DNA of 29,325 bases from a virus, in the IMG/VR virus record IMGVR_UViG_3300034101_000854, positions 1 to 29,325 of that record, one strand, 5' to 3'. Position 1 is the stretch's first letter. The number at the start of each line of letters is the position of its first letter. Positions 2-28,642 of the stretch are shown here, one piece after another. Made by a program: the position numbers and the translations under genes. The notes below the pieces were generated by a model. It did no database searches, had not been told where the DNA came from, and was given only the letters and a program-made list of their open reading frames with translations.

Positions 2-3000
2 AAACCAGGAATGACCGTTGCTGACTTCCAGAGAATAGCTCAGGAAAAAGGATTTGCAGCGGCGGCTGCTGAGGCACCTAAATATATAGTTGAACAAGTA
101 TTACAAAGCGCTCCTCAAATGGCTGGCCCTCTGGCTGTCGGTGCTGGTGCTGCTGCATTGTCTGGCCCCCTTGCTCCTATAGTTGGCCCTGTAGCTGGTA
201 TTGCTACCTACGGTGTTCAGCAGTTTGGTAATTTCTTAATGCGTCAAGCTAAAGAAAAGAATGATCCAGAAGAACTAGAACTTACCAAGGCGGCATTAAC
301 TGCTGCTGGTACTGCACCTATTGGATATTTTGCCGACCGGTTTACTGTTGGATTAGGTGGTGTAGGTAAGAACGCAGGTGAGCAAGTTATTAAAGAGTTA
401 GCTGCAAGACGTGCTGCTGGTGAGATAGGTGCTGGTGCTGTCGGTAAAGAGATAGCTAAGCGTGCTGGTAAAGGTGCAACAATTGGTGTTATTGCCGAAG
501 CTCCGACTGAGGTTCTTGAGCAAGTAGCTGAGCGCTATCAGGCTGGACTTGATCTAAACGACGAGGAAGCTAAGAACGAATACAAAGAAGCTTTCTTTGG
601 CGCTGCCGCAGCCGGTGGTGGTATCGGTGGAGCTGCTCGTGGTGCTACAGGATACGCACAATATAGAAGTCAGCTAAATCAAGCTAGGGCTGAAGCAGGC
701 TTACCACCTGAAGCGCCGTCTGCTAGAGAGAACGCAATTGAGGAGGCAAACACTTATGAAGCTACTGGAAATGTCCCCGGAACAGATCAATCTGGCGTTT
801 CTTTGCCTACAGAAGAAGGCGCAGCCATCAAAGGAGCTACTGGAATTACCGGAGGAGACTTGGGTGGAGCTGGGCAACCTCCTGGAGGCCCTACAAATAG
901 AGAAGAGTTACTCAACAATCAACTAAACGAACTACGTGGACAGCAAGCCGAGATAGCTAAATTTGATCCTACTGATCCCAGAATAGGTGAGATTGATGAA
1001 GTAATTAAAGAACTTCAAGCCGAGCGTAAAGCCCAAGTGTTTAATGCACCTGGCGAGCGTAATTTTGAAACTGTAAGTGATGAAGATTACAAAGCTAATT
1101 TTACATATAACGTTTACGATAAAAAAGAAGGGTATGAGGATTTTCCTAAGCGATATGGTGTAGGCACTGCAGAAGCTGGTAGCGAAGCATATTTTGATAC
1201 CCTAGAAGAAGCTAAGGCATACGCAGCTGAGCAACAAGCTTGGATGGATAAAACACGGCGGCGTTATAGGGCTACAACCTTCAATGCGCCTAGCCAAGAC
1301 TCGTTTGAATTTACTGAGCCTATTGGCGAACCAGATCGCAAAATAACTACCGAAGCCCCTGCTGAATTTACCCTAACCGCACCCGAAGGAGTTGTGCCTG
1401 AAGCTGCTGGTATTGAAGCCGCACCTGAGCCAGAACGTGCTCGGATGATGTTAATTGGTGAGCCTACCAATCCAACTAAACCCCTTAATTCTTTCTTTAA
1501 TAGCCTAAAGCCCGACACAGGCAACCCTGCTCAAGCCGTATCTTTTAGAAACGAAGTCAATAATCTACTTAATGAAGTAGCTGAGTTTGTCGGTGCGCCT
1601 ATGACTAAACAAGTCACTCGCTTTGAAGGCGAAGGCAAAGGCCCAGACGTTACCGCACCTGCTACAGGCCCAGAACTAGCAAATCGTATGCAGTTCTTAA
1701 ACAACTTCTTTGACAGTATTAGCGTAGCACCTAAAGAACGTGAAGCAATAACATCTGCGCTGTCTCAGCGCTTTGCTGGTATGTCTGCCAAAGACCAAGG
1801 TGCAGCCCTATCTGGTTTAACCAACGTACCTAAATTAAATACTTTACGTGGTATACGTGAGTTCCGTGCCAAGTTATCTGACGCCCTAGGTAAGTTTGAA
1901 CGTACCAGAATTGGTGAAGAAGAAACCGCCCTACCTTACAAACTAACTGATGACTTAGCTAAGATGGAACCCTACACTGCTAGGGCTATAGCTAATGCTA
2001 TCCGTAGTATTGATCGGTCTAAGCCAGAGGGTGCAGCTGCTTATGCTTACTTTGGTCCTGAGACTGGATGGCGTTACAGTTTGGCAATGCGCTCGGCTGC
2101 GTTTGACCTAGGAGCTGAGTTAAATACATACGCTACCGCACCGTTTAAAGATCAAAACAAAGACCAGGCAAAACTGTTTAGGGCTTGGGTTGAAGAGAAT
2201 TTACCTAGAACTGAACTTAAACGTTTTGATGCCACGGTAAAAGCCTACGAGCGGATGAACCAAAAAGGCGAAGAATTTAATAAACGCCGAGATGAACTTA
2301 AGAAAGAAGGTGGTGTAGCTCGTAAGTACATCACGATGATTACCCGTGCGCCGACTGGTAAAGAAGCAGCTAATCTTGTGCCCGATGCTGGCATGGGTAA
2401 ATATAAAGTCCGTGGGGAAGTAACCAAGCTAGACCCAACCAAGTTTTACCCAATGCACCCAGCTATCCAAGACCGGATTGCTAATAATGACCTACAAGGT
2501 GCTTTGCAGTTAATGGCTAGAAACCCAGGTAAGCAAGCTTCTAATGCTATGAAGTTTGTGGCTCGTTATGCCGAGCGGTTAGCTGAACTAGGACTTAAAT
2601 CTGAAATCGGGATAAATCAACAAGCTAATATTGCAGCGCATTTAATTAGAGCAAACGCTGGTCCGCAGCGTCGCATGCTTTTACAACAACTTGAAAGTTT
2701 TGAATGGGGTCCACAGTTTATTAAAGAGGCTGGGTTGGATGGTGCTATTAATGACCCCAAGACTATGCGTCAGACTTTGAACGCATTAGAAGGCATCAAA
2801 GCTGGGCAAATTAAATTTAAAGAAGATGTTATAGCCCCGGTGTATGGGCAGTTCATGGATACCCTTGAGGCTTACAAAGAAGCCGTCGGTGTGCTTGACT
2901 CGCTTGGTTCCTACTCTCCAGACCTTAACTTTATCAATATCAATGCCGACCTTGGCGGTATGAACCCAGCTACTTTCTTACACGAAGTAACACATGCTGC

Positions 3001-6000
3001 CACCATATATGCTCTAGAACCTGCAAACTATAGCAAGCTAACACAGGCACAGAAAGACGCCGTTGATGAGTTAAAAGAATTGCATGAGTTTGCTGTCAAG
3101 AAGTACGACACTCTGAAGAAGTTTATGCCCTTGTCCAAGATGGATGAGTATGGCTTTAAGAATATTCAGGAGTTTGTAGCCGAGCTTATGTCTAACGAGC
3201 GCTTCCAAGACGTGCTCAAGAAGATGAAGTACAAAGATGGCAAGACTTCTATGTGGGATCGCTTTGTACGCTTTGTTAAGCAGATGTTTGGTTTGGATAA
3301 CGTTGCTGGCTATAGTATGGCTAGGGTTAACGACATCCTCATGGCGTCCCCAGAACTAAGCAAAGAAGCCGTTGTTCACAACATGGGTGGTCGGACAAGA
3401 AAGCGTGTGTCTAATGGCACGATGCCAAGCAACCCAGGTTACATGTCGTTTATGGACAAAGTATTTGGTGGGCGTCCAGCATGGGGTGGAGTGCGTGGCG
3501 CTATGGGTGACTTTCTTGATAACGTCAATACTACGTCCCGTAAATATTACTTGGGTGCCTTTACCCTACGGCAACTTAATGACCTAGTCGGCAACCGCAT
3601 TCCTCAGTTTAGAACCTTTATTGCCAAGGTCGAGGGTATGTTAGACGAGCGTAACCGTCGCCTAGAAGAAGTCCGTAAGATTACCGACAAGTGGATGCGC
3701 TTTCAGAGTGACAACCCCGCTCAAGTAGATGTGCTCAATGGCGTAATGCTTGATGCTACCTTGCAAGGCAAAGACCCAGATAAAGGTTCAACAGGCGATA
3801 CCGTAATTGACAATGCTTGGATTAAGCTAAACGACGAAGGTAAAGCCATTTATCGCATGGTGCGTGACTACTACAAGAAGAACTTGCAAGACTATATTGA
3901 TACTATTGTTGAGAACAAAAAGGCTGGGCTACGCACAACTATCGACGTAAACAGCCCACAATACAAAGCCGAGACTGCTGCGTTAGAACAAGACCCAGAA
4001 GTCAAAAAAGTCCGTGAGTACTTTAAAAAACACACCCTAGAACCATACTTCCCAATCCGCCGTTTTGGTCGGTTCTCGTTGCAGTTAAGGGAAGGCAAGC
4101 AAAAAGAGTTCTATTTATTTGAAAGCGCTGCCGACCGTAAGGCATTTATGCGTAAGCGCATCCCTGAGCTCGAGGCTGAGATTGGTCGCTCGTTAACTAC
4201 TGATGAGGTAATTACCCGGAACTCTATCCAGAAACTAGCATCGGAAAACATGCGGGACTTTACCTTCTTGCGTGACCTCAAAGAAATTGTGCAGACTGCC
4301 AAGGGTTCAGGTAGCGCCGAGCTTAAGAACAACATTGAAGAGAGCCTAGAACAGCTTTACTTCTTGACCTTGCCTGACCAGAGCATCCGCAAAGCGTTTA
4401 TGAATCGTAAGGGCACCGCCGGTATGAACACCGATATGCTCCGTGCCTTTACATCGTCGGCTTTTCACATGTCGTATCAGCAGTCTCGGTATAAGTTTAG
4501 CCGTGGGTTGTATGGTGATATTGACGCAGCCAAGCAGTTTGTACGTAGCAAAGGTGGCAAAGAAGGTGAAGTTGATGCCGAGTATTTAGGCGAGCTTGAC
4601 CAACGCTTGGGCTACATCATGAACCCAACAGACACAGGAACAATACCGTCGTTCTTGTCAAACGCTTCGTTTATCTGGTTTATGACATCCCCAGCTTCGG
4701 CTTTGGTAAACATGATGGGTGTGCCAGCAGTGGGCGCCCCCGTGCTATCGGCTAAGTTTGGTGCAGCTAATACCGTCAAGAAGATTGCCGAATACACCAA
4801 AAAGTTCACTTCTACTGGGTTTAGGGATACCGATGGCAACATAGCCTTCCCGTCATTTACCAACAAACCTCAGTTGTTTACTCCTATTCAGCAGCGTGCG
4901 TTTGACCAGTTCGTTGCCGACGGTTTGATAGATATTACGCTGTCTCACGACTTGGTTGGAATGGCAGAAGCTCCGTCTAACCTATACACAAGCAGAACAC
5001 AAACTGCTATGAAGTGGCTAAGCGGTATGTTCCACGGTGCTGAGAAGTTTAACCGTGAGATTGTGTCTATGTCGGCCTTTGATATGGCATACGAAAAGGC
5101 CAAGAAGTCTGGCTACAGTGACGACGCTGCCTATCGCAAGGCTATTGATACTGCCAAGGATCTGACCTATAAGTCGATGTTTGACTACTCCACGCTAAAT
5201 AAACCACGCTACTTTCAACAGCCAGCGATGAAGGTTATCCTGCAGTTCAAGCAGTTCTCGCAACAGATGACCTATTTGTTAGCCCGTAGCACCTACGAGT
5301 GGATTGGCAAGAGCTATACCCCTGAAGAAATCCAAGACATCAAGTATCAAATCAAAGTCGACCATGACCAAAATAAACCAGGTTTGCCACCTCTTACAGA
5401 AGCAGAGTTGGACGCAGCCGTGCAGCAATATATTAAAGACGTGCGTATAGAAGCACGGGACCGCTTAGGTGGAACATTAGGTATGACTGCCGTATTTGCT
5501 GGGGCTAGTGGTTTACCCTTATGGTGGATGGTATCGGGCGTAATGAATGCTATGCACGCTGTGTTTGGTGAAGAAGATGAAGAGTTTGACTTTGAGAACT
5601 GGTTTAAGAACTGGTCTGAAAAGACCTTTGGTGGCTTCGTAGGCTCGGCTATCAGTCGTGGTGTTGTATCGCAAGTGCTTGGTGCCGACGTAGCCAGCCG
5701 TCTAAGCCTAAATGACATGTGGTACAGGGATACCCGCAATAGCCCAGATAACGTAACTGCCTTGCAAAATATGTTTATTAACCTGCTCGGCCCAACCGCC
5801 GGCCTAACTGTAAACGTAGCAAAAGGACTTGACCAGTTCCAAGATGGCTATATGGATCGTGCCTTTGAAACATGGAGCCCAGCGCTTGTTAAAAACATCC
5901 TAAAGAGCGGCAGATTCCTTGAAGAAGGCCGAGCCACTACCATCCGTGGTAATGAGCTCTTAGGGGATATTACAGGCTCAGAGATAGCTGCTCAAGCATT

Positions 6001-6337
6001 AGGGTTTACCCCAGAGCGTTTAGCCCAGCGTCAAAAAGCCAACATCGAAATGAAGACGGCGGAGCAAAAGATCTTGCAAAAGCGTCAGGCTTTACTTGAT
6101 GCCTTCTTTATGTCCATAGATAACGCTGATGACGACATGCGAGAGCGTGTTTTAGATAAAGTTGTATCGTACAACCGAGCAAACCCAGGTATGGCAATCC
6201 TGCCTGATAATCTTGTACGTTCTGTAGAGACCCGCTTTAAGCAACGTGCCTTAGCCGACAGTCTTGGTGGTATGGCTCTTAATAAGAAACTTATTGGTCA
6301 GTTAGCTGACATGGGTGATTACGGTAGACCTGACTAA
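2..6337 (+). CDS. Giant virion-associated multi-domain protein with zincin-like peptidase motif (5'-partial)
   Basis: The frame is open from base 2. The first ATG (11) has no usable ribosome site, because AGGA abuts it, so the true start probably lies to the left of the window. At least 2,108 residues are present. The first ~230 residues are Ala/Gly-rich with hydrophobic stretches, followed by a long low-complexity linker. Residues 991-995 (counted from the ATG at 11) read HEVTH, and a downstream EFVAE at 1054-1058 could give the third zinc ligand, as in zincin metallopeptidase domains of phage 'large polyvalent proteins'. Hydrophobic segments occur near 1550-1580 and 1825-1845. The C-terminal ~150 residues are helical and charged. 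Its length, architecture and strand opposite to the replication genes fit an internal virion protein ejected with the DNA. That role is inferred; the protease motif is seen directly. Confidence 0.85.
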   Translation, partial: KPGMTVADFQRIAQEKGFAAAAAEAPKYIVEQVLQSAPQMAGPLAVGAGAAALSGPLAPIVGPVAGIATYGVQQFGNFLMRQAKEKNDPEELELTKAALTAAGTAPIGYFADRFTVGLGGVGKNAGEQVIKELAARRAAGEIGAGAVGKEIAKRAGKGATIGVIAEAPTEVLEQVAERYQAGLDLNDEEAKNEYKEAFFGAAAAGGGIGGAARGATGYAQYRSQLNQARAEAGLPPEAPSARENAIEEANTYEATGNVPGTDQSGVSLPTEEGAAIKGATGITGGDLGGAGQPPGGPTNREELLNNQLNELRGQQAEIAKFDPTDPRIGEIDEVIKELQAERKAQVFNAPGERNFETVSDEDYKANFTYNVYDKKEGYEDFPKRYGVGTAEAGSEAYFDTLEEAKAYAAEQQAWMDKTRRRYRATTFNAPSQDSFEFTEPIGEPDRKITTEAPAEFTLTAPEGVVPEAAGIEAAPEPERARMMLIGEPTNPTKPLNSFFNSLKPDTGNPAQAVSFRNEVNNLLNEVAEFVGAPMTKQVTRFEGEGKGPDVTAPATGPELANRMQFLNNFFDSISVAPKEREAITSALSQRFAGMSAKDQGAALSGLTNVPKLNTLRGIREFRAKLSDALGKFERTRIGEEETALPYKLTDDLAKMEPYTARAIANAIRSIDRSKPEGAAAYAYFGPETGWRYSLAMRSAAFDLGAELNTYATAPFKDQNKDQAKLFRAWVEENLPRTELKRFDATVKAYERMNQKGEEFNKRRDELKKEGGVARKYITMITRAPTGKEAANLVPDAGMGKYKVRGEVTKLDPTKFYPMHPAIQDRIANNDLQGALQLMARNPGKQASNAMKFVARYAERLAELGLKSEIGINQQANIAAHLIRANAGPQRRMLLQQLESFEWGPQFIKEAGLDGAINDPKTMRQTLNALEGIKAGQIKFKEDVIAPVYGQFMDTLEAYKEAVGVLDSLGSYSPDLNFININADLGGMNPATFLHEVTHAATIYALEPANYSKLTQAQKDAVDELKELHEFAVKKYDTLKKFMPLSKMDEYGFKNIQEFVAELMSNERFQDVLKKMKYKDGKTSMWDRFVRFVKQMFGLDNVAGYSMARVNDILMASPELSKEAVVHNMGGRTRKRVSNGTMPSNPGYMSFMDKVFGGRPAWGGVRGAMGDFLDNVNTTSRKYYLGAFTLRQLNDLVGNRIPQFRTFIAKVEGMLDERNRRLEEVRKITDKWMRFQSDNPAQVDVLNGVMLDATLQGKDPDKGSTGDTVIDNAWIKLNDEGKAIYRMVRDYYKKNLQDYIDTIVENKKAGLRTTIDVNSPQYKAETAALEQDPEVKKVREYFKKHTLEPYFPIRRFGRFSLQLREGKQKEFYLFESAADRKAFMRKRIPELEAEIGRSLTTDEVITRNSIQKLASENMRDFTFLRDLKEIVQTAKGSGSAELKNNIEESLEQLYFLTLPDQSIRKAFMNRKGTAGMNTDMLRAFTSSAFHMSYQQSRYKFSRGLYGDIDAAKQFVRSKGGKEGEVDAEYLGELDQRLGYIMNPTDTGTIPSFLSNASFIWFMTSPASALVNMMGVPAVGAPVLSAKFGAANTVKKIAEYTKKFTSTGFRDTDGNIAFPSFTNKPQLFTPIQQRAFDQFVADGLIDITLSHDLVGMAEAPSNLYTSRTQTAMKWLSGMFHGAEKFNREIVSMSAFDMAYEKAKKSGYSDDAAYRKAIDTAKDLTYKSMFDYSTLNKPRYFQQPAMKVILQFKQFSQQMTYLLARSTYEWIGKSYTPEEIQDIKYQIKVDHDQNKPGLPPLTEAELDAAVQQYIKDVRIEARDRLGGTLGMTAVFAGASGLPLWWMVSGVMNAMHAVFGEEDEEFDFENWFKNWSEKTFGGFVGSAISRGVVSQVLGADVASRLSLNDMWYRDTRNSPDNVTALQNMFINLLGPTAGLTVNVAKGLDQFQDGYMDRAFETWSPALVKNILKSGRFLEEGRATTIRGNELLGDITGSEIAAQALGFTPERLAQRQKANIEMKTAEQKILQKRQALLDAFFMSIDNADDDMRERVLDKVVSYNRANPGMAILPDNLVRSVETRFKQRALADSLGGMALNKKLIGQLADMGDYGRPD

Positions 6338-9494: not shown

Positions 9495-9722
9495 TTAACT
9501 GCTTAGTATTTTCTCAATCAGTTCAATCTTGTCTTTGCGTGGGGTACCAGCACCCGTAAACCATGTGTACATAGTCATACGAGAGACGCCAAATTTCTTT
9601 GCCATCGTTGCTACTGGTATGCCCTTTGCGATGCAATGTTTGGCAAGGCGAACCCCGGGGTGCCGAGGGTTGCCCGCTTTTATTGCCTCAACGAGACGTA
9701 AACTATAACCTCTTAGACTCAT
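9495..9722 (-). CDS. Small helix-turn-helix DNA-binding protein
   Basis: A 75-residue basic protein with a Cro/XRE-like helix-turn-helix at about residues 36-56: 'IPVATMAKKFGVSRMTMYTW' has the Ala-x3-Gly-Val-Ser pattern of the turn. A short C-terminal helix follows. The ATG overlaps the stop of the preceding ssDNA-binding-like gene (ATGA). It stands 86 bases upstream of the primase gene, separated by the structured RNA with a U-tract, so it could regulate this operon or its own transcript. The target is unknown. The HTH assignment is from the motif alone. Confidence 0.8.
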   Translation of the reverse strand: MSLRGYSLRLVEAIKAGNPRHPGVRLAKHCIAKGIPVATMAKKFGVSRMTMYTWFTGAGTPRKDKIELIEKILSS

Positions 9723-12932: not shown

Positions 12933-13107
12933 AGCGATCTCCTTCTTTGCGGAAAAAATAGACTGAACCATCAGCCAATATCACGTATTTTATGTCGCTT
13001 TGGGGGTCGTCGCCAAGCATATCTTTTAGCATGGCTTCAATCTCTTCCTTAGACATTTGCGTGTCTTCGATGTCGACATTGCCTACAAACGGAATCGGCT
13101 CAATCAT
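12889..13107 (-). CDS. Small acidic hypothetical protein
   Basis: A 72-residue acidic protein. An N-terminal helical part is rich in Glu, Asp and Met (MSKEEIEAMLKDMLGDD), followed by a beta-rich stretch with 'YVILADGSVYFFRKEGDRY'. The ATG overlaps the methyltransferase stop (ATGA), and GGAG lies 10 bases upstream. The 3' end overlaps the HNH start by 44 bases. I do not recognise a family. Confidence 0.7.
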   Translation of the reverse strand: MIEPIPFVGNVDIEDTQMSKEEIEAMLKDMLGDDPQSDIKYVILADGSVYFFRKEGDRYALCEQTPPLQEGI

Positions 13108-13841
13108 TTCAGCATTTCTCCATGGTCGGGGTGTTGTGCAAGATTATTACTATTGATGCCTTCGGTTATCTCGTAGCCGTGCCCTTTGAGGTAGTCAAAC
13201 AACGCAGTGCGTTTCTCCTGATACCAAGGCTTCCATGTCCACGCTTCAAAGATAATCGGCGGATACTTGTTGTATTTGATAGTCTCAATACCGCCCTTGA
13301 TAACTTCTAGTTCGTGCCCTTCAACGTCAATCTTAATTAGGCGCACATTAGCATGTTGTCCATCGTCTAATGGGAACACCACCATGGTTTCTTTTGCGCC
13401 TTGAGTTGGGCATTCGTACTCAGTCTCACGCACTTCTTTATCAATACTAAAAGCACCGATGTTGGTCTCGTTGGCATAGTCAGGGACTACTATCTCAAAT
13501 CGATCCCGTTTGTCAGACAAACCAAAGTTATGACAATGGACATTATCTAGTCCATTAATCAAGGTATTGCCACATAATTGGTAATAGATTATCCGTTGTG
13601 GTTCAAACGCATGGAAGGTCAAGTGTGGGTTAGACTTAGCCAAAGGTAGCGTAAAACTACCCAAGTTAGCACCGATGTCCAACACTACACCATCTTCATG
13701 TTTTTGAAGTATCTTCTGAGCGATACCAAAGACTTCTATCTCGTAGCCCCCTTGCCTGAGTGCATTTGAGATAAGGTCTCTACCCTTAAATACTAGATAC
13801 TGAGTACCGAAGGCATTAACAAGTTCGCAGTTAGGTAGCAT
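13104..13841 (-). CDS. FkbM-family SAM-dependent methyltransferase
   Basis: A 245-residue methyltransferase. The SAM-binding motif I is VLDIGANLGSF (54-63), with AFEP at 78-81 ending the second strand and IKIDVEGHE at 169-177. The last is the hallmark of the FkbM (Methyltransf_21) family, which usually O-methylates sugars or small molecules. It follows the glycosyltransferase with a one-base gap and probably acts with it on a glycan or on modified phage or host components. The substrate cannot be read from the sequence. Starts at ATG 13841 with AAGGG just upstream. Confidence 0.9.
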   Translation of the reverse strand: MLPNCELVNAFGTQYLVFKGRDLISNALRQGGYEIEVFGIAQKILQKHEDGVVLDIGANLGSFTLPLAKSNPHLTFHAFEPQRIIYYQLCGNTLINGLDNVHCHNFGLSDKRDRFEIVVPDYANETNIGAFSIDKEVRETEYECPTQGAKETMVVFPLDDGQHANVRLIKIDVEGHELEVIKGGIETIKYNKYPPIIFEAWTWKPWYQEKRTALFDYLKGHGYEITEGINSNNLAQHPDHGEMLK

Positions 13842-13842
13842 G

Positions 13843-14619
13843 TCAAGCCCTTGGCAATGTGCCGTTGAAGTTATAAGTACCGCTATGGGTTAGCTGAGCC
13901 CAAGGCGCCGCATATACCTTAAAGCCATTCTGTCTAGCCAGCTTGCAAAAGTGATAGTCTTCTGAAAGCAAACGGTTGGTCGGTTCGTCGATGCTTGTAG
14001 CAAAATATTCATGGATGATCTTCTTTACTGGGTTCTTGTCAACAATGAGAATCATGTCGTTGGTATAGGTCGGCACTTTGTCTTTAAGGGCTTCAAACAC
14101 ACTACGTTTAATTAACATAAAACCTGTGCCGCCGTTGTCGATTTCCATAGGTTCGTTAATACTGCCTGTGCTTTCCATTGCACCACCTACTAAATTAACT
14201 ACGAACGAGCCTGTGTAGTTGGGCAAGTCTTTATAGTCGACACCACGCTTGACCGCATCGGATACTAACTGCCAGTTAATTTCTTTTTTAGGGTACAAGC
14301 CACAGATGATGTCTTTATCAGCATCAATCATCCGCACAATGTCAGCAGGGTTAAACGTAATGTCTGCATCAATAAACATCAGATGTGTTGCATCGGGTGT
14401 ATTTAAAAAATCATACGCCAAACCGTTACGAGCCCGTGTAATTAAAGACTCATTCATCATGTACGAGTAATACATCTTGATGCCGTGCTTCATAAACTCT
14501 TGAGTGCAGTTTAGGATACCCATGGTGTAACCGCCTACGCACATACCACCGTACATTGGTGTGGCTACAAATAGAATGGCTGGCTTTTTTGCTTCTACTG
14601 CTGGTACGTTTTCTAACAT
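13843..14619 (-). CDS. GT-A fold glycosyltransferase
   Basis: A 258-residue protein. It starts with a beta strand (ILFVATPMYGG) and has a DxD metal/nucleotide-sugar site, FIDADITF (D84-A-D86). The later SEDYHFC segment matches the acidic catalytic region of GT-A enzymes, and the C-terminus ends in 'HSGTYNFNGTL', common in phage members of this group. Such enzymes transfer sugars from nucleotide donors. In phages they modify DNA bases, surface glycans or virion proteins. AAGGAG precedes the ATG by 6 bases. Together with the FkbM gene it forms a two-gene glycan or base modification unit inside the replication operon. Confidence 0.85.
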   Translation of the reverse strand: MLENVPAVEAKKPAILFVATPMYGGMCVGGYTMGILNCTQEFMKHGIKMYYSYMMNESLITRARNGLAYDFLNTPDATHLMFIDADITFNPADIVRMIDADKDIICGLYPKKEINWQLVSDAVKRGVDYKDLPNYTGSFVVNLVGGAMESTGSINEPMEIDNGGTGFMLIKRSVFEALKDKVPTYTNDMILIVDKNPVKKIIHEYFATSIDEPTNRLLSEDYHFCKLARQNGFKVYAAPWAQLTHSGTYNFNGTLPRA

Positions 14620-20055: not shown

Positions 20056-20103
20056 GTGCTTTGCAAAAATATTTTTATTAGGACTTACCCGTAGTTCACA
20101 AAG

Positions 20104-20116
20104 CGACACGGTGTCG
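20104..20116. repeat. Intergenic inverted repeat, copy a
   Basis: CGACAC-G-GTGTCG. Its flanks (GTAGTTCACAAAG on the left, TTTTGTTAA on the right, plus strand) match the flanks of the four other copies. The asymmetric flanks point rightward here. It lies between the terminator and the replication promoter. Confidence 0.7.
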
Positions 20117-20130
20117 TTTTGTTAAGCAAT

Positions 20131-20155
20131 AAAAAAGCCCCTCCGAAGAGGGGCT
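20131..20155 (-). terminator. Leftward intrinsic terminator with cUUCGg loop
   Basis: An 8-bp stem (20136-20143 with 20148-20155) closes a UUCG loop on the minus strand and is followed by six U residues (20136-20131). It would end transcripts of the early AAA+/VWA region before the replication promoter. Nearly the same design as the hairpins at 6336 and 29272. Confidence 0.85.
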
Positions 20156-21523: not shown

Positions 21524-22411
21524 CTAAAAGTTCATCTTGTTAAGAATAGCGTCTACCTTTGCCTTGGCATCTGTGCGTGCAGTAAACGATTCACGCAAAG
21601 TATCGGCATCATACTTGTCAAGGATACCCTTGAGGTCTTTGCGTGCTTGTTCCATCTGTGGGTCTTTGGTCAGATTCAAGTGCTGTAACAAACCTACCAA
21701 CTCTTTGGCATTTTCAACCAAACTATCTCGGAACACCCTGAACTCGTGGCTCGGTGTGCCGTCTTCGTCATGCACTACATCAACAACTAGGCGATCACTC
21801 ATGCGGGTCAAGCAGTCCTTCAACCTTTCCCAAGCATCACGCATAGCGTTATTGAGCCTGTCGTTGTAAGCCTTCTCGCAGTTAGAAAGGATCTCGGCTT
21901 TGGCTTCTTCGTTGATGTCGATGCGGAAGTCCCCCGCCTGTGGCACTGGGAAGAAACTGTATTGCATTGAGAACCGATTGCGTAGCGTATGCACTTCGGG
22001 ATATTCTGTTCTGTCAAATAGATCACCCAACTGAAATGCGGCGGCGATGATTAGGTTTGGATAAGCATCAATAAACTTATCGACTAATGCGTTGTAGCCT
22101 TGTTCCATCACACCCAACTGTTCTTTGTATGCCATGAAGTTTGACATAGGCAGAAGTCGTGAGCCGTTGTCAGTCCAAGGCAAAGTTTGTGATATGTGCC
22201 AAGAGCGTATTGCGGCGGCTTGCTTGATGATCTTATCCAATACACCAGTGCCAGCCATAAGATTCTTGTTAGCGTTGACTACCGATGTCTTGGTCTTCTT
22301 CGCATTGTCAATCTCGGCAGAGACACTCTTATCCAACTTGCGACCAGTCCAACTACGAATACTGAGTTCGACAAGCATTGCTGATGATCCGATTGAAATA
22401 CTGTTATTCAT
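21524..22411 (-). CDS. DUF3150-like protein of the AAA+/VWA module
   Basis: AAGGAG 6 bases before the ATG at 22411 sets the start (295 aa). The N-terminus 'SIRSWTGRKLDKSVSAEI' and the later 'SWHISQTLPWTDNGSRLLP' with 'YPNLI' resemble the conserved blocks of DUF3150, a helical family often found beside MoxR-type ATPases and VWA proteins in phages. The rest is mostly helical and charged, without catalytic motifs. It is separated from the VWA gene by the small ribbon-helix-helix gene and inverted repeat copy b. Likely a partner or substrate adaptor of the AAA+/VWA pair. The family call is from memory of its motifs. Confidence 0.75.
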   Translation of the reverse strand: MNNSISIGSSAMLVELSIRSWTGRKLDKSVSAEIDNAKKTKTSVVNANKNLMAGTGVLDKIIKQAAAIRSWHISQTLPWTDNGSRLLPMSNFMAYKEQLGVMEQGYNALVDKFIDAYPNLIIAAAFQLGDLFDRTEYPEVHTLRNRFSMQYSFFPVPQAGDFRIDINEEAKAEILSNCEKAYNDRLNNAMRDAWERLKDCLTRMSDRLVVDVVHDEDGTPSHEFRVFRDSLVENAKELVGLLQHLNLTKDPQMEQARKDLKGILDKYDADTLRESFTARTDAKAKVDAILNKMNF

Positions 22412-22439
22412 TTGATTCTCCTTGGTTAAGTTCACATTC

Positions 22440-22452
22440 CGACACTACGTCG
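22440..22452. repeat. Intergenic inverted repeat, copy b
   Basis: CGACACTACGTCG, the least symmetrical copy. Its left flank AAGTTCACATT and right flank TTTTGTTAA still match copy a. The TAG stop of the ribbon-helix-helix gene (22447-22445) lies in its centre, which may explain the changed centre. Confidence 0.65.
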
Positions 22453-22597
22453 TTTTGTTAATTTGATTGACGATATGTTGTATTACTTGAGAAAAGGATG
22501 GAACAAAGCCCAGAATCTCGGCAAGCCTATCCCTTTCTTTTTTAAGCAACTCCATTGTCTCGGGGTTAATCGAGACATTTACTTTTTTACTGTTCAT
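22445..22597 (-). CDS. Ribbon-helix-helix (Arc/CopG-like) DNA-binding protein (50 aa)
   Basis: A 50-residue gene with AAGGAG 6 bases before the ATG. The product has the ribbon-helix-helix layout: a short strand KKVNVSIN, helix A from PETMELLKKERDRLAEI, a turn GFVPS, and helix B from FSQVIQHIVNQI. Such proteins dimerise and bind palindromic operators with the paired strands. Its stop codon sits inside inverted repeat copy b, directly upstream of the DUF3150-like gene, so autoregulation and control of the other copies is an attractive idea, but it is inferred. It lies 10 bases after the VWA gene. Confidence 0.8.
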   Translation of the reverse strand: MNSKKVNVSINPETMELLKKERDRLAEILGFVPSFSQVIQHIVNQINKTT

Positions 22598-22607
22598 CGT
22601 CTTCTCC

Positions 22608-23867
22608 TTATTCCACATGAACGACTTTGCCTACGACTGTTGAGTCTTTGAAGTGACGATTGCCTTTCACGCACCACAACACAGGCATACCGATCTCCCA
22701 ATTACTTGGTTCTTGAGCGGGGATATACCCGTCGGTCAGCATCAATAGACACTCACCTCTTATGTTGTGCTTGTGCATATACTTAGGCACACAGGCGGGC
22801 TCAGTCCCACCCCCACCCGCAGGCTTTGTGGACTCTACGAGGTTGGATAGCTCGTTGCTTTGATATGTTTCTCGTGATGCCACATGAGTATCCCAATACA
22901 ACACATCAATAGCCTCGGGCGATACCTCATCACAGATAGACTTCACCTCGGACAAGAACTGCGTCAACTCCTCAGTCCCAATCGAACCCGATGTGTCGAT
23001 ACCAATGACAATGCTACCTACCTTCTCGTCATAACTGCTGGGCATAATGATGTCTGAGGCTATGTATCTCTTGTGTAAGCGTCGCCAAGATGTTTGGTCT
23101 TTGCCTTGCGTGACAGACTTCACAAACTCACGCAGAGCATCTTTCCAATTTATTTTGGGCACAAGCATCTCGCTAATGTTGCGATCCACATTGCCACCCA
23201 TCTTACCCACGAGAATAGAACCTTGACGCAGAGCAGACTCGATCTCCTTGGCTTGGGATTCCTTCTCTTGCTCGGACATAGACTCAGCACCTTCCCAATC
23301 ATGCTCGTCTAGTCCATCGGGTAGCCCTTCGCCTTGACCCTCGCCCTCGCCTTGCTCGTTGCCACCGCCTACGACATACACCTTCTGTTTACCCGCATCT
23401 TTGCCATGCTTCTTGACAAGTTCGAGAAACACTTGGTGTGCATCCATGCCACGATATGCTTCATCCATACAACCTAGGTTCTTGCCGTCAGGCGTTGTTG
23501 GGAACTCGGTGACTTCCTGTTCCCTGTCATAGTCGTGTATCTGCAAGTTAATGACATAGTCGCAAGCCATGTTCGCAAGCACAGCGTTCTGTTTGTATAA
23601 CTTTTCCCATACGATCAAATGCCGATAAGCCTTGTGCATATTCTCGTGTAGGATAAGAAACGACAACTGCTTGTCATTCAGACTATCGACAAAGCCTCGA
23701 CCATAGATCACATCGAGTCCGTTGGTTTGTGCGGTGAACGGCAAGTCCTTGTCCACCACGCTTACCTTGCCAATCATGAACAAGCCTGAGAACAATGCAA
23801 AGTTCTTGTGCTTCATCATCTGCACATGGCATCTTTCGATGCGTTGCTCGGCAGTTAGTTTAGCCAT
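22608..23867 (-). CDS. DUF2201-type metallopeptidase-like/VWA protein
   Basis: A 419-residue two-domain protein. The N-terminal ~150 residues match the putative metallopeptidase domain of DUF2201, with H74-E-N-M-H78 as an HExxH motif. A Gly/Glu/Gln-rich linker (~168-190) follows. The C-terminal VWA-like domain has the metal site DTSGS (291-295), GGGGT (351-355) and LTDG (377-380). VWA proteins partner with MoxR-type AAA+ rings (compare NorD, ViaA, CobT), and the ATPase is encoded just upstream. AAGGAG lies 7 bases before the ATG, which overlaps the upstream gene by 13 bases. The target is unknown. Both the peptidase and metal sites look intact. Confidence 0.9.
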   Translation of the reverse strand: MAKLTAEQRIERCHVQMMKHKNFALFSGLFMIGKVSVVDKDLPFTAQTNGLDVIYGRGFVDSLNDKQLSFLILHENMHKAYRHLIVWEKLYKQNAVLANMACDYVINLQIHDYDREQEVTEFPTTPDGKNLGCMDEAYRGMDAHQVFLELVKKHGKDAGKQKVYVVGGGNEQGEGEGQGEGLPDGLDEHDWEGAESMSEQEKESQAKEIESALRQGSILVGKMGGNVDRNISEMLVPKINWKDALREFVKSVTQGKDQTSWRRLHKRYIASDIIMPSSYDEKVGSIVIGIDTSGSIGTEELTQFLSEVKSICDEVSPEAIDVLYWDTHVASRETYQSNELSNLVESTKPAGGGGTEPACVPKYMHKHNIRGECLLMLTDGYIPAQEPSNWEIGMPVLWCVKGNRHFKDSTVVGKVVHVE

Positions 23868-24115
23868 TTTGCTACTCCTTCCTCGTTAGATTCATCTTCA
23901 TCATCGTCGTCATAACACTTAGCGACGGCGGTTCCAAACATCAAGATCGCATGATGCGGTGGTGTGTCAGCATCCTTCATAACATTTACCAACATACTCA
24001 TGAGCACACCAACAACCATACCTATCTCAAGTTCTTCCTTTTCAAAGTAAGTGCCAAGCACTTCCTTGATCTTGTTGGCTTGTTCAAACTTTTGTTTCAA
24101 TTCTGCTTCATCCAT
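23855..24115 (-). CDS. Small acidic helical protein between the AAA+ and VWA genes (86 aa)
   Basis: The start at 24115 is chosen because AAGGAG lies 6 bases before it; a frame from 24163 adds 16 residues without a site. An N-terminal charged helix (MDEAELKQKFEQANKIKEVL) leads to a hydrophobic middle (MVVGVLMSMLVNVM) and a strongly acidic end (YDDDDEDESNEEG). It overlaps the VWA gene by 13 bases, so the two are made together. Probably an accessory or assembly factor of the AAA+/VWA pair. No family recognised. Confidence 0.75.
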   Translation of the reverse strand: MDEAELKQKFEQANKIKEVLGTYFEKEELEIGMVVGVLMSMLVNVMKDADTPPHHAILMFGTAVAKCYDDDDEDESNEEGVAKWLN

Positions 24116-24125
24116 GTGCATCTCC

Positions 24126-25220
24126 TTAGAATAGATACTGATTAGTCCGCATCCAATCAACAAACGATTGGCTCGTAAAGAACAACTTCTTCTTCTCGTC
24201 GTCTTTCATACCTGAGAGGCAGAACACAGACTGCAACTCCTTCGGTGTGCGTTTCAGATACTCAAAGAACTTACCGATGGTTTGACGATCAATCTTCTGC
24301 ACCGCAGAGAACGCAAGCAAGCACAAAGCGGCTGGACTATTCGGAACTACTGCGTTGTTGGGGTCTTTGATGATGGATTCCCAAGTCGGTAGGCTGTCGG
24401 CTACGGCAACATAAGCCATCAAATCTCTAGCTGCTGGTGCACCAATCGTGCCTTCCAATGCACAGATAACTGCGTTTTCCGTGAAGTCGTTGCGTTTTTT
24501 GAGAATGTTTGACGCACGCTCGAGCGAACGGGGAGAGACAAATGACCGTTGCACCTCTTTAGGATTAAAGATATATTTGTTCCCGTTCTGTCCCGCATCA
24601 AGATAAGATGCCAAGGCTTGTGGTGTCTCACGAACCCAAGCAAGAATCTCAGGTGCGATCTCGTTCTTCAAAGCCCATTCACCCCAAGAGTTCGGATCGA
24701 CTGAACCATCAACATTCAAACCCGCATGAGGCTTACGCACATTGACCACACTAATACGATTACGAGAGTGAGCCATCATGTTATCGCCTACACCATCGGT
24801 AGTGTAATTACCTGCCGTTACGACTATCGTTTTCTCGTGTAAGGGGATACCCATAATCATGCGTGGGTGGTTGAGCATCGGGTGCAACATATTCTTAACT
24901 GACTGATGACCCTTGGTGAACTCGTCGGCAAACACTACGAGTGGCTCGTTAAGATGAAAACCCCATTGCTCGTTCGGGTAGATGCGAGTAGTCTTGGTCT
25001 CGTGGTTTGGAATCGGAATACCCAACTCACCCAACTCCACATTAGGCACATCAATGTAGATACCACGAAAGCCTGTCCGTGCCACGATGTTCTTGAACAT
25101 AGAAGTCTTACCGACCCCTGGCTCACCCATCAGATGGAAGGTAGCACCTTCGCCCATACCAACAATCATATCCTCGGCTTCTTTTAGGTTTACGAGGCGG
25201 TTCAAAATTACTTCAGACAT
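24126..25220 (-). CDS. MoxR-type AAA+ ATPase
   Basis: A 364-residue AAA+ protein. Walker A is GEPGVGKTS (32-40), Walker B VVFADEF (95-101), sensor 1 TAGNYT with N138, and an Arg-finger-like HSRNR near 150-154. The family type fits MoxR/CobS-like ATPases. These form hexameric rings and remodel protein targets, guided by a VWA partner, here the gene two positions downstream. AAGGAG precedes the ATG by 6 bases. Inverted repeat copy c sits about 39 bases before the start, so this gene leads one cassette of the early region. Confidence 0.92.
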   Translation of the reverse strand: MSEVILNRLVNLKEAEDMIVGMGEGATFHLMGEPGVGKTSMFKNIVARTGFRGIYIDVPNVELGELGIPIPNHETKTTRIYPNEQWGFHLNEPLVVFADEFTKGHQSVKNMLHPMLNHPRMIMGIPLHEKTIVVTAGNYTTDGVGDNMMAHSRNRISVVNVRKPHAGLNVDGSVDPNSWGEWALKNEIAPEILAWVRETPQALASYLDAGQNGNKYIFNPKEVQRSFVSPRSLERASNILKKRNDFTENAVICALEGTIGAPAARDLMAYVAVADSLPTWESIIKDPNNAVVPNSPAALCLLAFSAVQKIDRQTIGKFFEYLKRTPKELQSVFCLSGMKDDEKKKLFFTSQSFVDWMRTNQYLF

Positions 25221-25258
25221 TTAATTCTCCTTGTTTAGATTAAAAATTACATAACAAA

Positions 25259-25273
25259 CCGACACCATGTCGG
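25259..25273. repeat. Intergenic inverted repeat, copy c
   Basis: CCGACA-CCA-TGTCGG, with AACAAA on the left and GTTGTGAACTAC on the right (plus strand). It occupies the 61-base gap before the AAA+ gene and, as RNA, would form a 6-bp hairpin with a 3-nt loop. Confidence 0.8.
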
Positions 25274-25281
25274 GTTGTGAA

Positions 25282-26268
25282 CTACTCTGCACCTTTGACA
25301 TACTTAGCGTTGCGATCACGGAAGGGCACACCAATCTCTTGCGGTATTCTCTCGAACACTACTTCCTCATGGTGATACTTGATGATCTCGTCAAACGCTC
25401 TAGCAAAACTACTTGCTTTAGCAGAATACAAACTGCTCCGATACGAATAGTCCGACGCACCCGAGGCAACCACATACATGAGTTTGTATTTCATCTCGAG
25501 GTCGTTCTTCTCCATCGCCTCTTGCACAAGACGCATGAGCCTACTGCGTTGTTCGGGCACACTGATAACAACTTGTTTGTTGTTTAAGTCATACCTTGTG
25601 TATTCCTGATACCCACGAAAGCCGTCGGTCTGAAACTTAAACTCTTCTCGCATAGAACGAATCTTCTGCCAGTCGCCTAACTGTCCATCAGCCATGAGCA
25701 TGGTCTTGCCGTATTCAATGAAGTCGTTGTAATACTTTCGCAACTTGTTCATCTCTTTGCGACGCACCGCAAACTTGTGCTCTTGCTTGATGTCGGTTGG
25801 TCTAAAGCCATGCCCGTCAACAAACTTGATCGACATCTCAGATCCGTAGGCAGTAGGCATCGGGAAGGCTTCGCCAATCTTGTTGACGAAATACCACTTG
25901 CTACCCTCAGATGCGACCTCGCCTATGTATTCCTTGAGCACATAGTTCAAGAACATCATAGTCGTAGGGCCCCGCCATTGGTTTACACGCAAGATAATCT
26001 CCCCATCAGGGAAGAACTCGATGCAGTCGGTCGCATACAACTTGCACGCATAGGAAGTGACGAACTCTCCGAGTGGATTGTCCTCGGATTCTTTGCTTGA
26101 ATGACGCTTATGAATCTGCATCCATGTGTAGCGTCGGTTCTTGCCAAGGGGTTTCTCCTCGGGGTATCGCCCACGAATGGGCTTGACCTCCTCGAATATC
26201 CGCTTTGCCATGTCAAAGTTAGCGATGCTTGGCAGTCGGGCAGAATTGTAGGTATGGGTGTGATACAT
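25282..26268 (-). CDS. Hypothetical early protein (328 aa)
   Basis: A 328-residue soluble protein. 'GKNRRYTWMQIHKRH' near 43-55 is basic. A beta-rich middle contains 'FPDGEIILRVNQWRGPTTMM', and the C-terminal half is helical and charged (MRRLRK-type segments and 'QEAMEKNDLEMKYKLMYVVA'). The ATG overlaps the upstream stop as TAATG, with AGGGGG upstream. It lies just before the AAA+ gene, separated by copy c. It may be a substrate or partner of the module, but this is position only. No family recognised. Confidence 0.8.
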   Translation of the reverse strand: MYHTHTYNSARLPSIANFDMAKRIFEEVKPIRGRYPEEKPLGKNRRYTWMQIHKRHSSKESEDNPLGEFVTSYACKLYATDCIEFFPDGEIILRVNQWRGPTTMMFLNYVLKEYIGEVASEGSKWYFVNKIGEAFPMPTAYGSEMSIKFVDGHGFRPTDIKQEHKFAVRRKEMNKLRKYYNDFIEYGKTMLMADGQLGDWQKIRSMREEFKFQTDGFRGYQEYTRYDLNNKQVVISVPEQRSRLMRLVQEAMEKNDLEMKYKLMYVVASGASDYSYRSSLYSAKASSFARAFDEIIKYHHEEVVFERIPQEIGVPFRDRNAKYVKGAE

Positions 26269-26807
26269 TACTTGCCCCCCTTAAATAGCAAGGACTCGTA
26301 ATGCTCGACAAGAATCTTGAGCCTGCGGTTCTCCGCCATGAGTTCGTTGTTGGTGTTGGTTTCAGGAGGGACATATATTTCGGGGAACACACCTCGTCTT
26401 TGAAGTGCATCTCTCCATGGGGTCTCCATACCATCTTCGTATAAGCCGTTCTCGATCTTGGGCTTTTTGATCTTAGTCGGCTTTGCCTTTTCCTTGGTTG
26501 CGTCTTTGATTAGCATGATCTTCAACTCTTTGGTTTTCTTGGCTCTGCGTTGTAGGGCTTTGACCCGCTTGGGGTTGCGTATCTTCCACATGGCTGTGTG
26601 AATTGTGTTCACTTGCTTGCCTGTTAGATTGGCAATCTCAGGGGCTTTGGTAATCCCATGCTCTATGCACCACTTCGTTGCTTCCATGATAGACATGGTT
26701 TTGAAGTCAGGCGTTGTGGGGGTTGGAGAGGGATTTGTCGGTGCACTTGGCAACGAGGCTAGGTCTTGCTTTACTTTCTCTAATAATGCGTTTACTTCGG
26801 GTTTCAT
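26268..26807 (-). CDS. Putative HTH-containing early protein (179 aa)
   Basis: The start at 26807 has AAGGAG 6 bases upstream; the frame open to 26837 lacks a site. A Pro-rich spacer (~20-34) leads to a helix-turn-helix-like region at ~38-78 ('APEIANLTGKQVNTIHTAMW'), then a Lys-rich stretch. A motif 'WRDALQRRGVFPEIYVPP' (131-148) and a final leucine-rich helix (~155-174), likely a coiled coil, follow. DNA binding and self-association are plausible. It may regulate early genes. Confidence 0.7.
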   Translation of the reverse strand: MKPEVNALLEKVKQDLASLPSAPTNPSPTPTTPDFKTMSIMEATKWCIEHGITKAPEIANLTGKQVNTIHTAMWKIRNPKRVKALQRRAKKTKELKIMLIKDATKEKAKPTKIKKPKIENGLYEDGMETPWRDALQRRGVFPEIYVPPETNTNNELMAENRRLKILVEHYESLLFKGGK

Positions 26808-26838
26808 AATTAACTCCTTGGTTAGATTGATTAACATA

Positions 26839-26853
26839 CCGACACCATGTCGG
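26839..26853. repeat. Intergenic inverted repeat, copy d
   Basis: CCGACA-CCA-TGTCGG, identical in core to copy c. AACATA lies on the left and CTTGTGAACTGCGG on the right. It is in the gap between the 88-aa membrane protein and the HTH-like gene. Confidence 0.8.
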
Positions 26854-26880
26854 CTTGTGAACTGCGGTGATACTTACTGC

Positions 26881-28578: not shown

Positions 28579-28596
28579 AATCATCTCCTTAACAAA

Positions 28597-28642
28597 CCGA
28601 CAAACTGTCGGGAAGTGAACTGCGGTTGAACTGCGATTGAAC
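28597..28642. repeat. Intergenic inverted repeat, copy e, with 11-bp phased TGAACTGCG repeats
   Basis: CCGACA-AAC-TGTCGG at 28597-28611 lies between AACAAA and AGTGAACTGCGG. Two exact TGAACTGCG units (28616-28624, 28627-28635) and a partial third (28638-28642) follow at an 11-bp period, i.e. on one face of the helix. The array lies downstream of the early promoter start, immediately before the first ribosome site. Confidence 0.75.

What the first reader, a model, noticed from the sequence alone, without database searches (positions are those of the whole stretch)
21524..25220. Phage-encoded MoxR AAA+ / metallopeptidase-VWA / DUF3150 module with small partners
The core trio is intact: Walker motifs, HENMH, and the MIDAS DTSGS. 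It sits in the early region with an 86-aa acidic helical protein between the ATPase and VWA genes and an RHH protein after them. MoxR/VWA pairs elsewhere load metals or remodel enzymes (NorQ/NorD, CobS/CobT, RavA/ViaA). What a phage does with one is not established. A host-takeover, anti-defence or enzyme-activation machine is possible. The extra small protein and the flanking 328-aa and 296-aa unknowns may be dedicated parts.
Basis: partly seen in the sequence, partly recalled or inferred. Interest (0 to 1): 0.75.

Follow-up and report, generated by a model that had tools for sequence, protein, structure and literature searches.

The report
MoxR-DUF3150-VWA machine of phages and plasmids
A phage from an uncultured, mostly metagenome-known lineage carries an intact three-protein ATP-driven machine (a MoxR motor, a peptidase-like VWA partner and a DUF3150 protein), and the same trio also sits on many large plasmids, often beside DNA-recombination genes, so its most likely job is handling the mobile element's own DNA complexes rather than building virus particles.

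Summary
The minus-strand trio is intact: MoxR ATPase (24126-25220), zincin-VWA protein (22608-23867; HENMH, complete MIDAS) and a DUF3150-family protein (21524-22411). The window protein alone misses PF11348, but 26 of 35 aligned relatives match it.

Within one large phage lineage the order p328-MoxR-VWA-DUF3150-p338-VRR-PolA is nearly invariant. The VRR nuclease and polymerase are equally constant, so this synteny alone does not prove partnership. The 86-aa and ribbon-helix-helix proteins are optional (13 of 28 loci each).

The MoxR/peptidase-VWA pair is not new. It is N4 gp24/gp25, and was described in jumbo phages with a proposed virion-assembly role. What appears undescribed is DUF3150 as a recurrent third component. 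Contiguous or near-contiguous MoxR-DUF3150-VWA cassettes occur on proteobacterial plasmids and MOBH conjugative elements; in 8 of 10 sampled gammaproteobacterial plasmids they lie beside bet/recT and/or lambda-type exonuclease genes. Plasmids make no virions, so virion assembly cannot be the shared function. I favour a remodelling machine for DNA recombination or replication complexes (about 45%); counter-defence is the main rival.

A repeated, lineage-specific palindrome marks MoxR and DUF3150 gene starts and suggests co-regulation. No interaction or activity was tested.

The parts
24126..25220 (-). MoxR-type AAA+ ATPase, 364 aa, core
   Evidence: Pfam AAA_5/AAA, phrog_1297 1.9e-46, invariant Walker A/B, sensor and arginine residues; best solved relative by sequence Midasin 2.1e-24
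22608..23867 (-). N-terminal zincin metallopeptidase-like domain plus C-terminal VWA domain, 419 aa, core
   Evidence: PF13203 and PF09967, phrog_1314 1.1e-80, HExxH and MIDAS conserved
21524..22411 (-). DUF3150-family protein, 295 aa, third core component
   Evidence: PF11348 in 26 of 35 relatives; conserved with MoxR/VWA in phages and plasmids; AlphaFold2 pLDDT 86.5, mostly helical, no significant PDB match
25282..26268 (-). p328, 328 aa, lineage-specific associated protein
   Evidence: 28/28 VWA-anchored and 26/31 DUF3150-anchored loci; AlphaFold2 pLDDT 95.9, no PDB match, significant matches only among phage proteins without known function
   Evidence: 28/28 VWA-anchored and 27/31 DUF3150-anchored loci; no family assigned
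23855..24115 (-). small acidic helical protein, 86 aa, optional
   Evidence: family alignment; 13/28 loci, 26 of 93 nonredundant loci. Its conserved C-terminus (..WLN) is explained by overlap with the VWA start codon
22445..22618 (-). RHH-like small protein, 57 aa, optional
   Evidence: 13/28 and 11/31 loci; no significant family hit
25251..25288 (.). dyad element upstream of MoxR
   Evidence: copy of the 38-nt repeat with CCGACAnnnTGTCGG core; a lineage palindrome lies at the MoxR start in 39 of 46 loci against 9% at random positions
22431..22468 (.). dyad element upstream of DUF3150
   Evidence: at the DUF3150 start in 35 of 51 loci against 8.5% at random positions
26831..26868 (.). dyad element upstream of the p189-p328 unit
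20095..20132 (.). dyad element about 100 bp upstream of VRR-NUC
28589..28626 (.). dyad element upstream of the gene starting near 28580

Best explanation
The module is a mobile-element AAA+ remodelling machine made of three core subunits. Shown by sequence: a MoxR ATPase with its key catalytic residues intact, a partner joining a zincin-type peptidase domain to a VWA domain with an intact MIDAS, and a DUF3150-family protein that recurs with such pairs. Inferred: MoxR forms a ring that engages the VWA protein through its VWA domain, as NorQ engages NorD, and ATP turnover pulls on the partner and its bound target. DUF3150 is the adaptor or clamp that gives the machine its target. Inferred and most likely: the target is a DNA-recombination or replication complex of the element, or a host complex that acts on the element's DNA, which is remodelled or cleaved by the zincin domain. 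In this phage lineage p328 and p338 are added, fast-evolving specificity factors.
For: Intact motor, peptidase and MIDAS motifs; HExxH and a MIDAS-type motif also in 21 of 22 other VWA partners examined, from phages, plasmids and CobT-type VWAs. DUF3150 occurs with MoxR 31/31 and VWA 31/31 when used as anchor. On plasmids 41 of the 44 records matching the window DUF3150 also match the window VWA; the other three are Manganitrophus plasmids, two of which were read and carry DUF3150 next to a different AAA+ ATPase. Cassettes on Rhodovastum, Simplicispira, Burkholderia, Cupriavidus and Variovorax plasmids. A second subtype (CbbQ/NorQ-type MoxR + PF11348 1.2e-82 + CobT-type VWA) has a DUF3150 matching 1,119 plasmid records, 968 predicted conjugative, and in 8 of 10 sampled loci sits within about 8 kb of bet/recT and/or lambda-type exonuclease genes, often with ssb. 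In the window lineage VRR-NUC, PolA and a PD-(D/E)XK nuclease follow directly. Distance correlations after removing pol, nuclease and VRR signal remain for MoxR-VWA (0.50), MoxR-p338 (0.47), p328-VWA (0.36) and p328-DUF3150 (0.37). NorQD mechanism: PMC13036017.
Against: No interaction, ATPase or peptidase activity was tested. The MoxR-DUF3150 partial correlation is weak (0.12, p 0.08). The DNA link is guilt by association; the Burkholderia, Cupriavidus and Variovorax cassettes have no bet/recT neighbour within 10 kb. In SXT, deletion of s067, s068 and s070, which by position may be these genes, lowered transfer at most tenfold. In Rts1 the VWA gene is split by IS2 and neither MoxR nor DUF3150 is among the 32 genes needed for efficient conjugation. 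Homology of the window DUF3150 to the plasmid subtype rests on PF11348; direct profile comparison is weak. Most phages with the pair lack a detectable DUF3150.
Confidence: 0.45

Rival explanations
1. Counter-defence or host takeover: the machine disassembles or cleaves host complexes (defence enzymes, RecBCD, or other host machinery) when phage or plasmid DNA enters the cell.
For: Shared by phages and conjugative elements, both of which enter as naked DNA; zincin domain available for cleavage; p328 and p338 diverge far faster (mean identity 27% and 25%) than the trio (56-61%) in the same loci, as expected of parts facing host targets; dispensable for conjugation in laboratory strains.
Against: No hit in the PADLOC defence library, though that library does not list counter-defence; the pair is a core gene set of N4-like phages of many hosts, which fits a housekeeping role; position inside recombination/replication operons.
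Confidence: 0.27
2. Virion assembly or maturation chaperone-protease, as proposed for the jumbo-phage pair and shown in part for the archaeal virus ATV.
For: Published proposal for the same MoxR/peptidase-VWA architecture (PMC7824862); ATV p618/p892 interact and are linked to tail development (PMC4124505).
Against: The same trio is on plasmids and conjugative elements, which have no virion; in the phages it lies with replication genes, not structural genes.
Confidence: 0.13
3. Metal-cofactor loading of a phage or host enzyme, as CobST or NorQD do.
For: MoxR/VWA pairs insert metal in NorQD (PMC13036017); the plasmid subtype has CobT and CbbQ_C domains.
Against: No conserved metalloenzyme gene is linked to the module across the lineage among the genes tracked; the window MoxR has no CbbQ_C hit.
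Confidence: 0.08
4. Only MoxR and VWA work together; DUF3150, p328 and p338 are neighbours kept by lineage synteny and do something else.
For: VRR-NUC and PolA are as constant as the module in the same lineage (28/28 each); most phages with the pair lack DUF3150.
Against: DUF3150 accompanies MoxR/VWA in two subtypes and in unrelated element types; orders inside the cluster are rearranged while members stay together.
Confidence: 0.1

Closest known systems
MoxR / metallopeptidase-vWA pair of group 2.2 jumbo phages (Iyer et al. 2021, PMC7824862)
   Same: Same pair architecture: MoxR plus vWA with an N-terminal metallopeptidase domain, phage-encoded.
   Different: No DUF3150, p328 or p338 in the passage read; proposed for virion assembly; ours sits among replication genes and has plasmid counterparts.
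N4 gp24/gp25 and Schitoviridae relatives
   Same: AAA+ ATPase and vWFA protein, core genes of N4-like phages (PMC4193335, PMC2784036); relatives homologous by profile.
   Different: No DUF3150, p328 or p338 detected near the pair in the relatives sampled; function unknown.
MoxR-DUF3150-VWA cassette beside ssb-bet/recT-exo in IncC, IncT (Rts1) and related plasmids
   Same: Same three roles, PF11348 third component, HExxH and MIDAS in the VWA protein.
   Different: CbbQ/CobT-type ATPase and VWA, longer DUF3150; only remote sequence relation to the window proteins.
MoxR-vWA ternary conflict systems (VMAP, iSTAND, FtsH; Kaur et al. 2020, PMC7159879)
   Same: A MoxR-vWA core plus a third component.
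   Different: No VMAP, iSTAND, FtsH or effector domain found; here in phages and plasmids, not chromosomal systems of multicellular bacteria.
NorQ/NorD, CobS/CobT, RavA/ViaA
   Same: MoxR ATPase working with a VWA protein; likely same ring-plus-VWA mechanics (PMC13036017).
   Different: No metal-enzyme or respiratory target linked; zincin-VWA of DUF2201 type; extra DUF3150 subunit.
ATV p618/p892
   Same: Virus-encoded MoxR ATPase with interacting VWA protein (PMC4124505).
   Different: Archaeal virus, tail development, reported without the peptidase domain (PMC7824862).

Membership tests
MoxR AAA+ ATPases | Walker A, Walker B, sensor and arginine-finger residues intact | tested here: met
MoxR AAA+ ATPases | Encoded with a VWA partner | tested here: met
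MoxR AAA+ ATPases | Hexameric ring with ATPase activity modulated by the VWA partner | not testable with these tools
   needs biochemistry
DUF2201 metallopeptidase-VWA proteins (PF13203 + PF09967) | Both domains above the curated cut-off in one protein | tested here: met
   85.3 and 54.5 bits against 23.2 and 26.4
DUF2201 metallopeptidase-VWA proteins (PF13203 + PF09967) | HExxH and MIDAS residues | tested here: met
DUF2201 metallopeptidase-VWA proteins (PF13203 + PF09967) | Peptidase activity | not testable with these tools
   never tested for this family to my knowledge
DUF3150 (PF11348) | Window protein itself matches the Pfam model | tested here: not met
   no hit at E 0.1
DUF3150 (PF11348) | Aligned, co-located relatives of the window protein match the model | tested here: met
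   26 of 35, best 1e-6, one relative over the cut-off (27.1 bits)
MoxR-vWA ternary conflict systems (Kaur 2020) | Third component VMAP, iSTAND or FtsH, or an effector domain | tested here: not met
   no such domain in the seven proteins
NorQ/CbbQ-type MoxR systems | CbbQ_C domain in the ATPase | tested here: not met
   CbbQ_C seen only in the pAQU1 ATPase
N4 gp24/gp25-type phage pair | Homologous ATPase and VWA in an N4-like phage | tested here: inconclusive
   Proteins are homologous; the window phage was not shown to be N4-like
Known anti-phage defence systems | Match to a PADLOC model | tested here: not met

The most novel reading that the evidence does not exclude
DUF3150 defines a so far unnamed, mobile-element-wide MoxR-DUF3150-VWA machine, used by phages and conjugative plasmids alike to remodel or cleave complexes on their DNA during recombination or establishment in a new cell.
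Probability: 0.4. Interest if true: 0.75.

Novelty: new variant of a known kind. Interest (0 to 1): 0.55.

Why it matters
The MoxR/VWA pair is a core gene set of N4-like phages, and DUF3150 relatives are on over a thousand sequenced plasmids, most of them conjugative, in MoxR-DUF3150-VWA cassettes wherever sampled; yet the role is unknown. Linking the two makes an old question (what N4 gp24/gp25 do) testable in tractable systems: phage N4 in E. coli K-12 and well-studied MOBH plasmids. It also weakens virion assembly as the shared function.

Tried and rejected
Structure route: confident AlphaFold2 models of p328 (pLDDT 95.9) and DUF3150 (86.5) gave no significant PDB match; p328 matched significantly only phage proteins without known function. 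Sequence search of solved structures gave nothing convincing for DUF3150 or the zincin-VWA protein. Reverse anchoring on p328 and p338 failed: too divergent for the pattern scan, so their co-occurrence is known only from VWA and DUF3150 anchors. p328 and p338 are not related to each other. No p328, p338 or DUF3150 homologue was found beside the MoxR/VWA pair of the sampled N4-like phages, phage G, phiFa, CRP-7, a Rhizobium phage or a jumbo phage, nor p328/p338 in MinM2. The RHH protein as regulator of the dyad was considered and not supported: lineages without it have the dyad too. The idea that the conserved end of the 86-aa protein is functional was dropped, since it overlaps the VWA start. 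The literature library has no paper naming DUF3150, which is weak evidence of novelty because most subscription papers are missing.
Full report
WHAT IS THERE. The window is a 29,325-base virus record. On its minus strand runs a gene series that ends in replication genes: p189, p328, MoxR, an 86-aa protein, a zincin-VWA protein, an RHH-like protein, a DUF3150-like protein, a 97-aa protein, p338 (296 aa from its likely start), VRR-NUC, a 150-aa protein, PolA and a PD-(D/E)XK nuclease. The three core proteins are intact. The ATPase keeps Walker A, Walker B, N138, R155 and R231 across 32 relatives including phages of other groups. The VWA protein has both Pfam domains over cut-off, with the HExxH zinc-binding motif and the MIDAS residues invariant or nearly so. 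The DUF3150 call is right by family: the window protein misses PF11348 but 26 of 35 aligned relatives hit it. The real start is near 22411, after a ribosome site.

CONSERVATION IN THE LINEAGE. VWA-based and DUF3150-based scans of viral contigs gave about 160 loci, some overlapping. Counting only nonredundant loci with enough flank, p328, MoxR, VWA, DUF3150 and p338 are each in 28 of 28 VWA-anchored loci, in one order in 26; with DUF3150 as anchor MoxR and VWA are in 31 of 31, p338 in 27, p328 in 26. VRR-NUC and PolA are 28 of 28 as well, so synteny in one lineage is not proof of partnership. Two facts go further. The inner order is rearranged in several lineages (for example MoxR-VWA-p328-DUF3150-p338, or DUF3150 first) while the members stay together. 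And after removing the signal shared with PolA, the nuclease and VRR-NUC, residual distance correlations remain for most pairs, strongest for MoxR-VWA (0.50) and MoxR-p338 (0.47) and weakest for MoxR-DUF3150 (0.12, p 0.08). p328 and p338 evolve much faster (mean identity 27% and 25%) than the trio (56-61%) in the same 36 loci. The 86-aa and RHH-like proteins are optional: 13 of 28 loci each, and 23 of 93 loci have no ORF of at least 45 aa between MoxR and VWA. The conserved WLN end of the 86-aa protein is the out-of-frame reading of the VWA start.

BEYOND THE LINEAGE. 757 phage records match the VWA protein and 325 the ATPase, among them N4-like phages, phage G, jumbo phages, Thermus and Rhizobium phages. 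Those examined have only the pair. DUF3150 was found in three related cyanophage records; the one read (MinM2) has MoxR and VWA with it. It is also in a Sumerlaeota contig in the order MoxR-DUF3150-VWA. On plasmids, 44 records match the window DUF3150 and 41 of them also match the window VWA (my intersection of the lists). Loci read from Rhodovastum, Simplicispira, Burkholderia, Cupriavidus and Variovorax plasmids show MoxR-DUF3150-VWA, contiguous in four of five. The remaining three records are Manganitrophus plasmids; the two read place DUF3150 beside another AAA+ ATPase with DUF1257 and DUF2997.

A SECOND SUBTYPE. The plasmid pAQU1 carries PF11348 (1.2e-82) with a CbbQ-type ATPase and a CobT-type VWA protein, interleaved with bet and exo. 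Its DUF3150 matches 1,119 plasmid records, 968 of them predicted conjugative. In ten sampled loci all ten have an AAA+ ATPase, DUF3150 and VWA, and eight have bet/recT and/or a lambda-type exonuclease within about 8 kb, often with ssb. The CobT-type VWA proteins tested also have HExxH and a MIDAS-type motif; of 23 VWA proteins examined, window included, only the Variovorax one lacks HExxH. The link between the two subtypes is remote: direct profile comparison is weak, so it rests on PF11348 and the shared layout.

WHAT THIS MEANS. The pair is not new. It is N4 gp24/gp25, two of 14 core genes (PMC4193335), and the metallopeptidase-VWA form was described in jumbo phages with a virion-assembly proposal (PMC7824862), by analogy with ATV p618/p892 (PMC4124505). 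Plasmids and conjugative elements have no virion, so assembly cannot be the shared function of the DUF3150 form. Position among recombination and replication genes in both phages and plasmids points to DNA complexes. Published deletions limit the claim: in SXT, deleting bet, exo, s067, s068 or s070 lowered transfer at most tenfold (that s067, s068 and s070 are the trio is my inference from position and was not checked), and in Rts1 neither MoxR nor DUF3150 appears among the 32 genes needed for efficient conjugation, by the order of its genes after bet and exo, while the VWA gene there is split by IS2. The trio is therefore not a transfer engine. Mechanism by analogy: NorQ pulls on NorD through the VWA domain (PMC13036017); here the VWA protein adds a peptidase domain and DUF3150 would supply the target. 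None of this was tested experimentally.

A CIS ELEMENT. Five copies of a 38-nt dyad with a CCGACAnnnTGTCGG core (two copies imperfect) lie in the gaps of this region, upstream of MoxR, DUF3150, p189-p328, the gene near 28580, and about 100 bp upstream of VRR-NUC. Across the lineage, 72 of 159 loci have an exact 6+6 palindrome in three or more copies against 0 of 60 mononucleotide shuffles; some of these loci overlap, and in 104 nonredundant loci the figure is 51. The sequence differs between lineages; the arms are constant by construction of the search and the centres vary. A copy lies at the MoxR start in 39 of 46 loci and at the DUF3150 start in 35 of 51, against about 9% at random positions; at PolA it is 0 of 38. 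The random positions were not restricted to intergenic sequence, so the contrast with PolA and p338 (5 of 46) is the better control. This looks like a shared operator or promoter feature that puts MoxR and DUF3150 under common control; the closest published parallel I found is the inverted repeat of the cluster K mycobacteriophage start-associated sequences (PMC3203893). The binding protein is unknown.

VERDICT. Observation confirmed; interpretation partly supported. The system is a new variant of the known MoxR-VWA kind, with DUF3150 as a recurrent third component shared by phages and plasmids.

Noticed in passing
window 20095-20132, 22431-22468, 25251-25288, 26831-26868, 28589-28626; family-wide in L004-L166: Repeated palindromic element near gene starts; each lineage has its own palindrome sequence (29 types as scored in 51 loci), concentrated at MoxR and DUF3150 starts. 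Looks like a fast-changing operator system; regulator unknown.
   Followed up: partly
window 22608-23867 and phage records: PHROG 1314 and many RefSeq phage records call this zincin-VWA protein 'HNH endonuclease'; no HNH domain was found by Pfam, so this looks like a propagated misannotation.
   Followed up: partly
window 25282-26268: p328 gives a very confident AlphaFold2 model (pLDDT 95.9) with no significant PDB match; possibly an unsolved fold, with smaller uncharacterised phage proteins matching part of it.
   Followed up: partly
L190 29030-32192: Plasmid Rts1 has its VWA gene interrupted by IS2 while MoxR and DUF3150 stay intact.
   Followed up: no
L182, L183: Manganitrophus plasmids carry DUF3150 next to a different AAA+ ATPase with DUF1257 and DUF2997, a third context for DUF3150.
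   Followed up: no
window 11-6337: 2108-aa protein on the plus strand with a DarB-like antirestriction match over its middle part.
   Followed up: no
window 13104-14619: FkbM-like methyltransferase-type and glycosyltransferase-type reading frames inside the replication region (from sequence pattern only).
   Followed up: no
window 9495-9722 and 26268-26807: Two proteins with helix-turn-helix-like stretches (75 aa, and p189), candidates for the palindrome-binding regulator.
   Followed up: no
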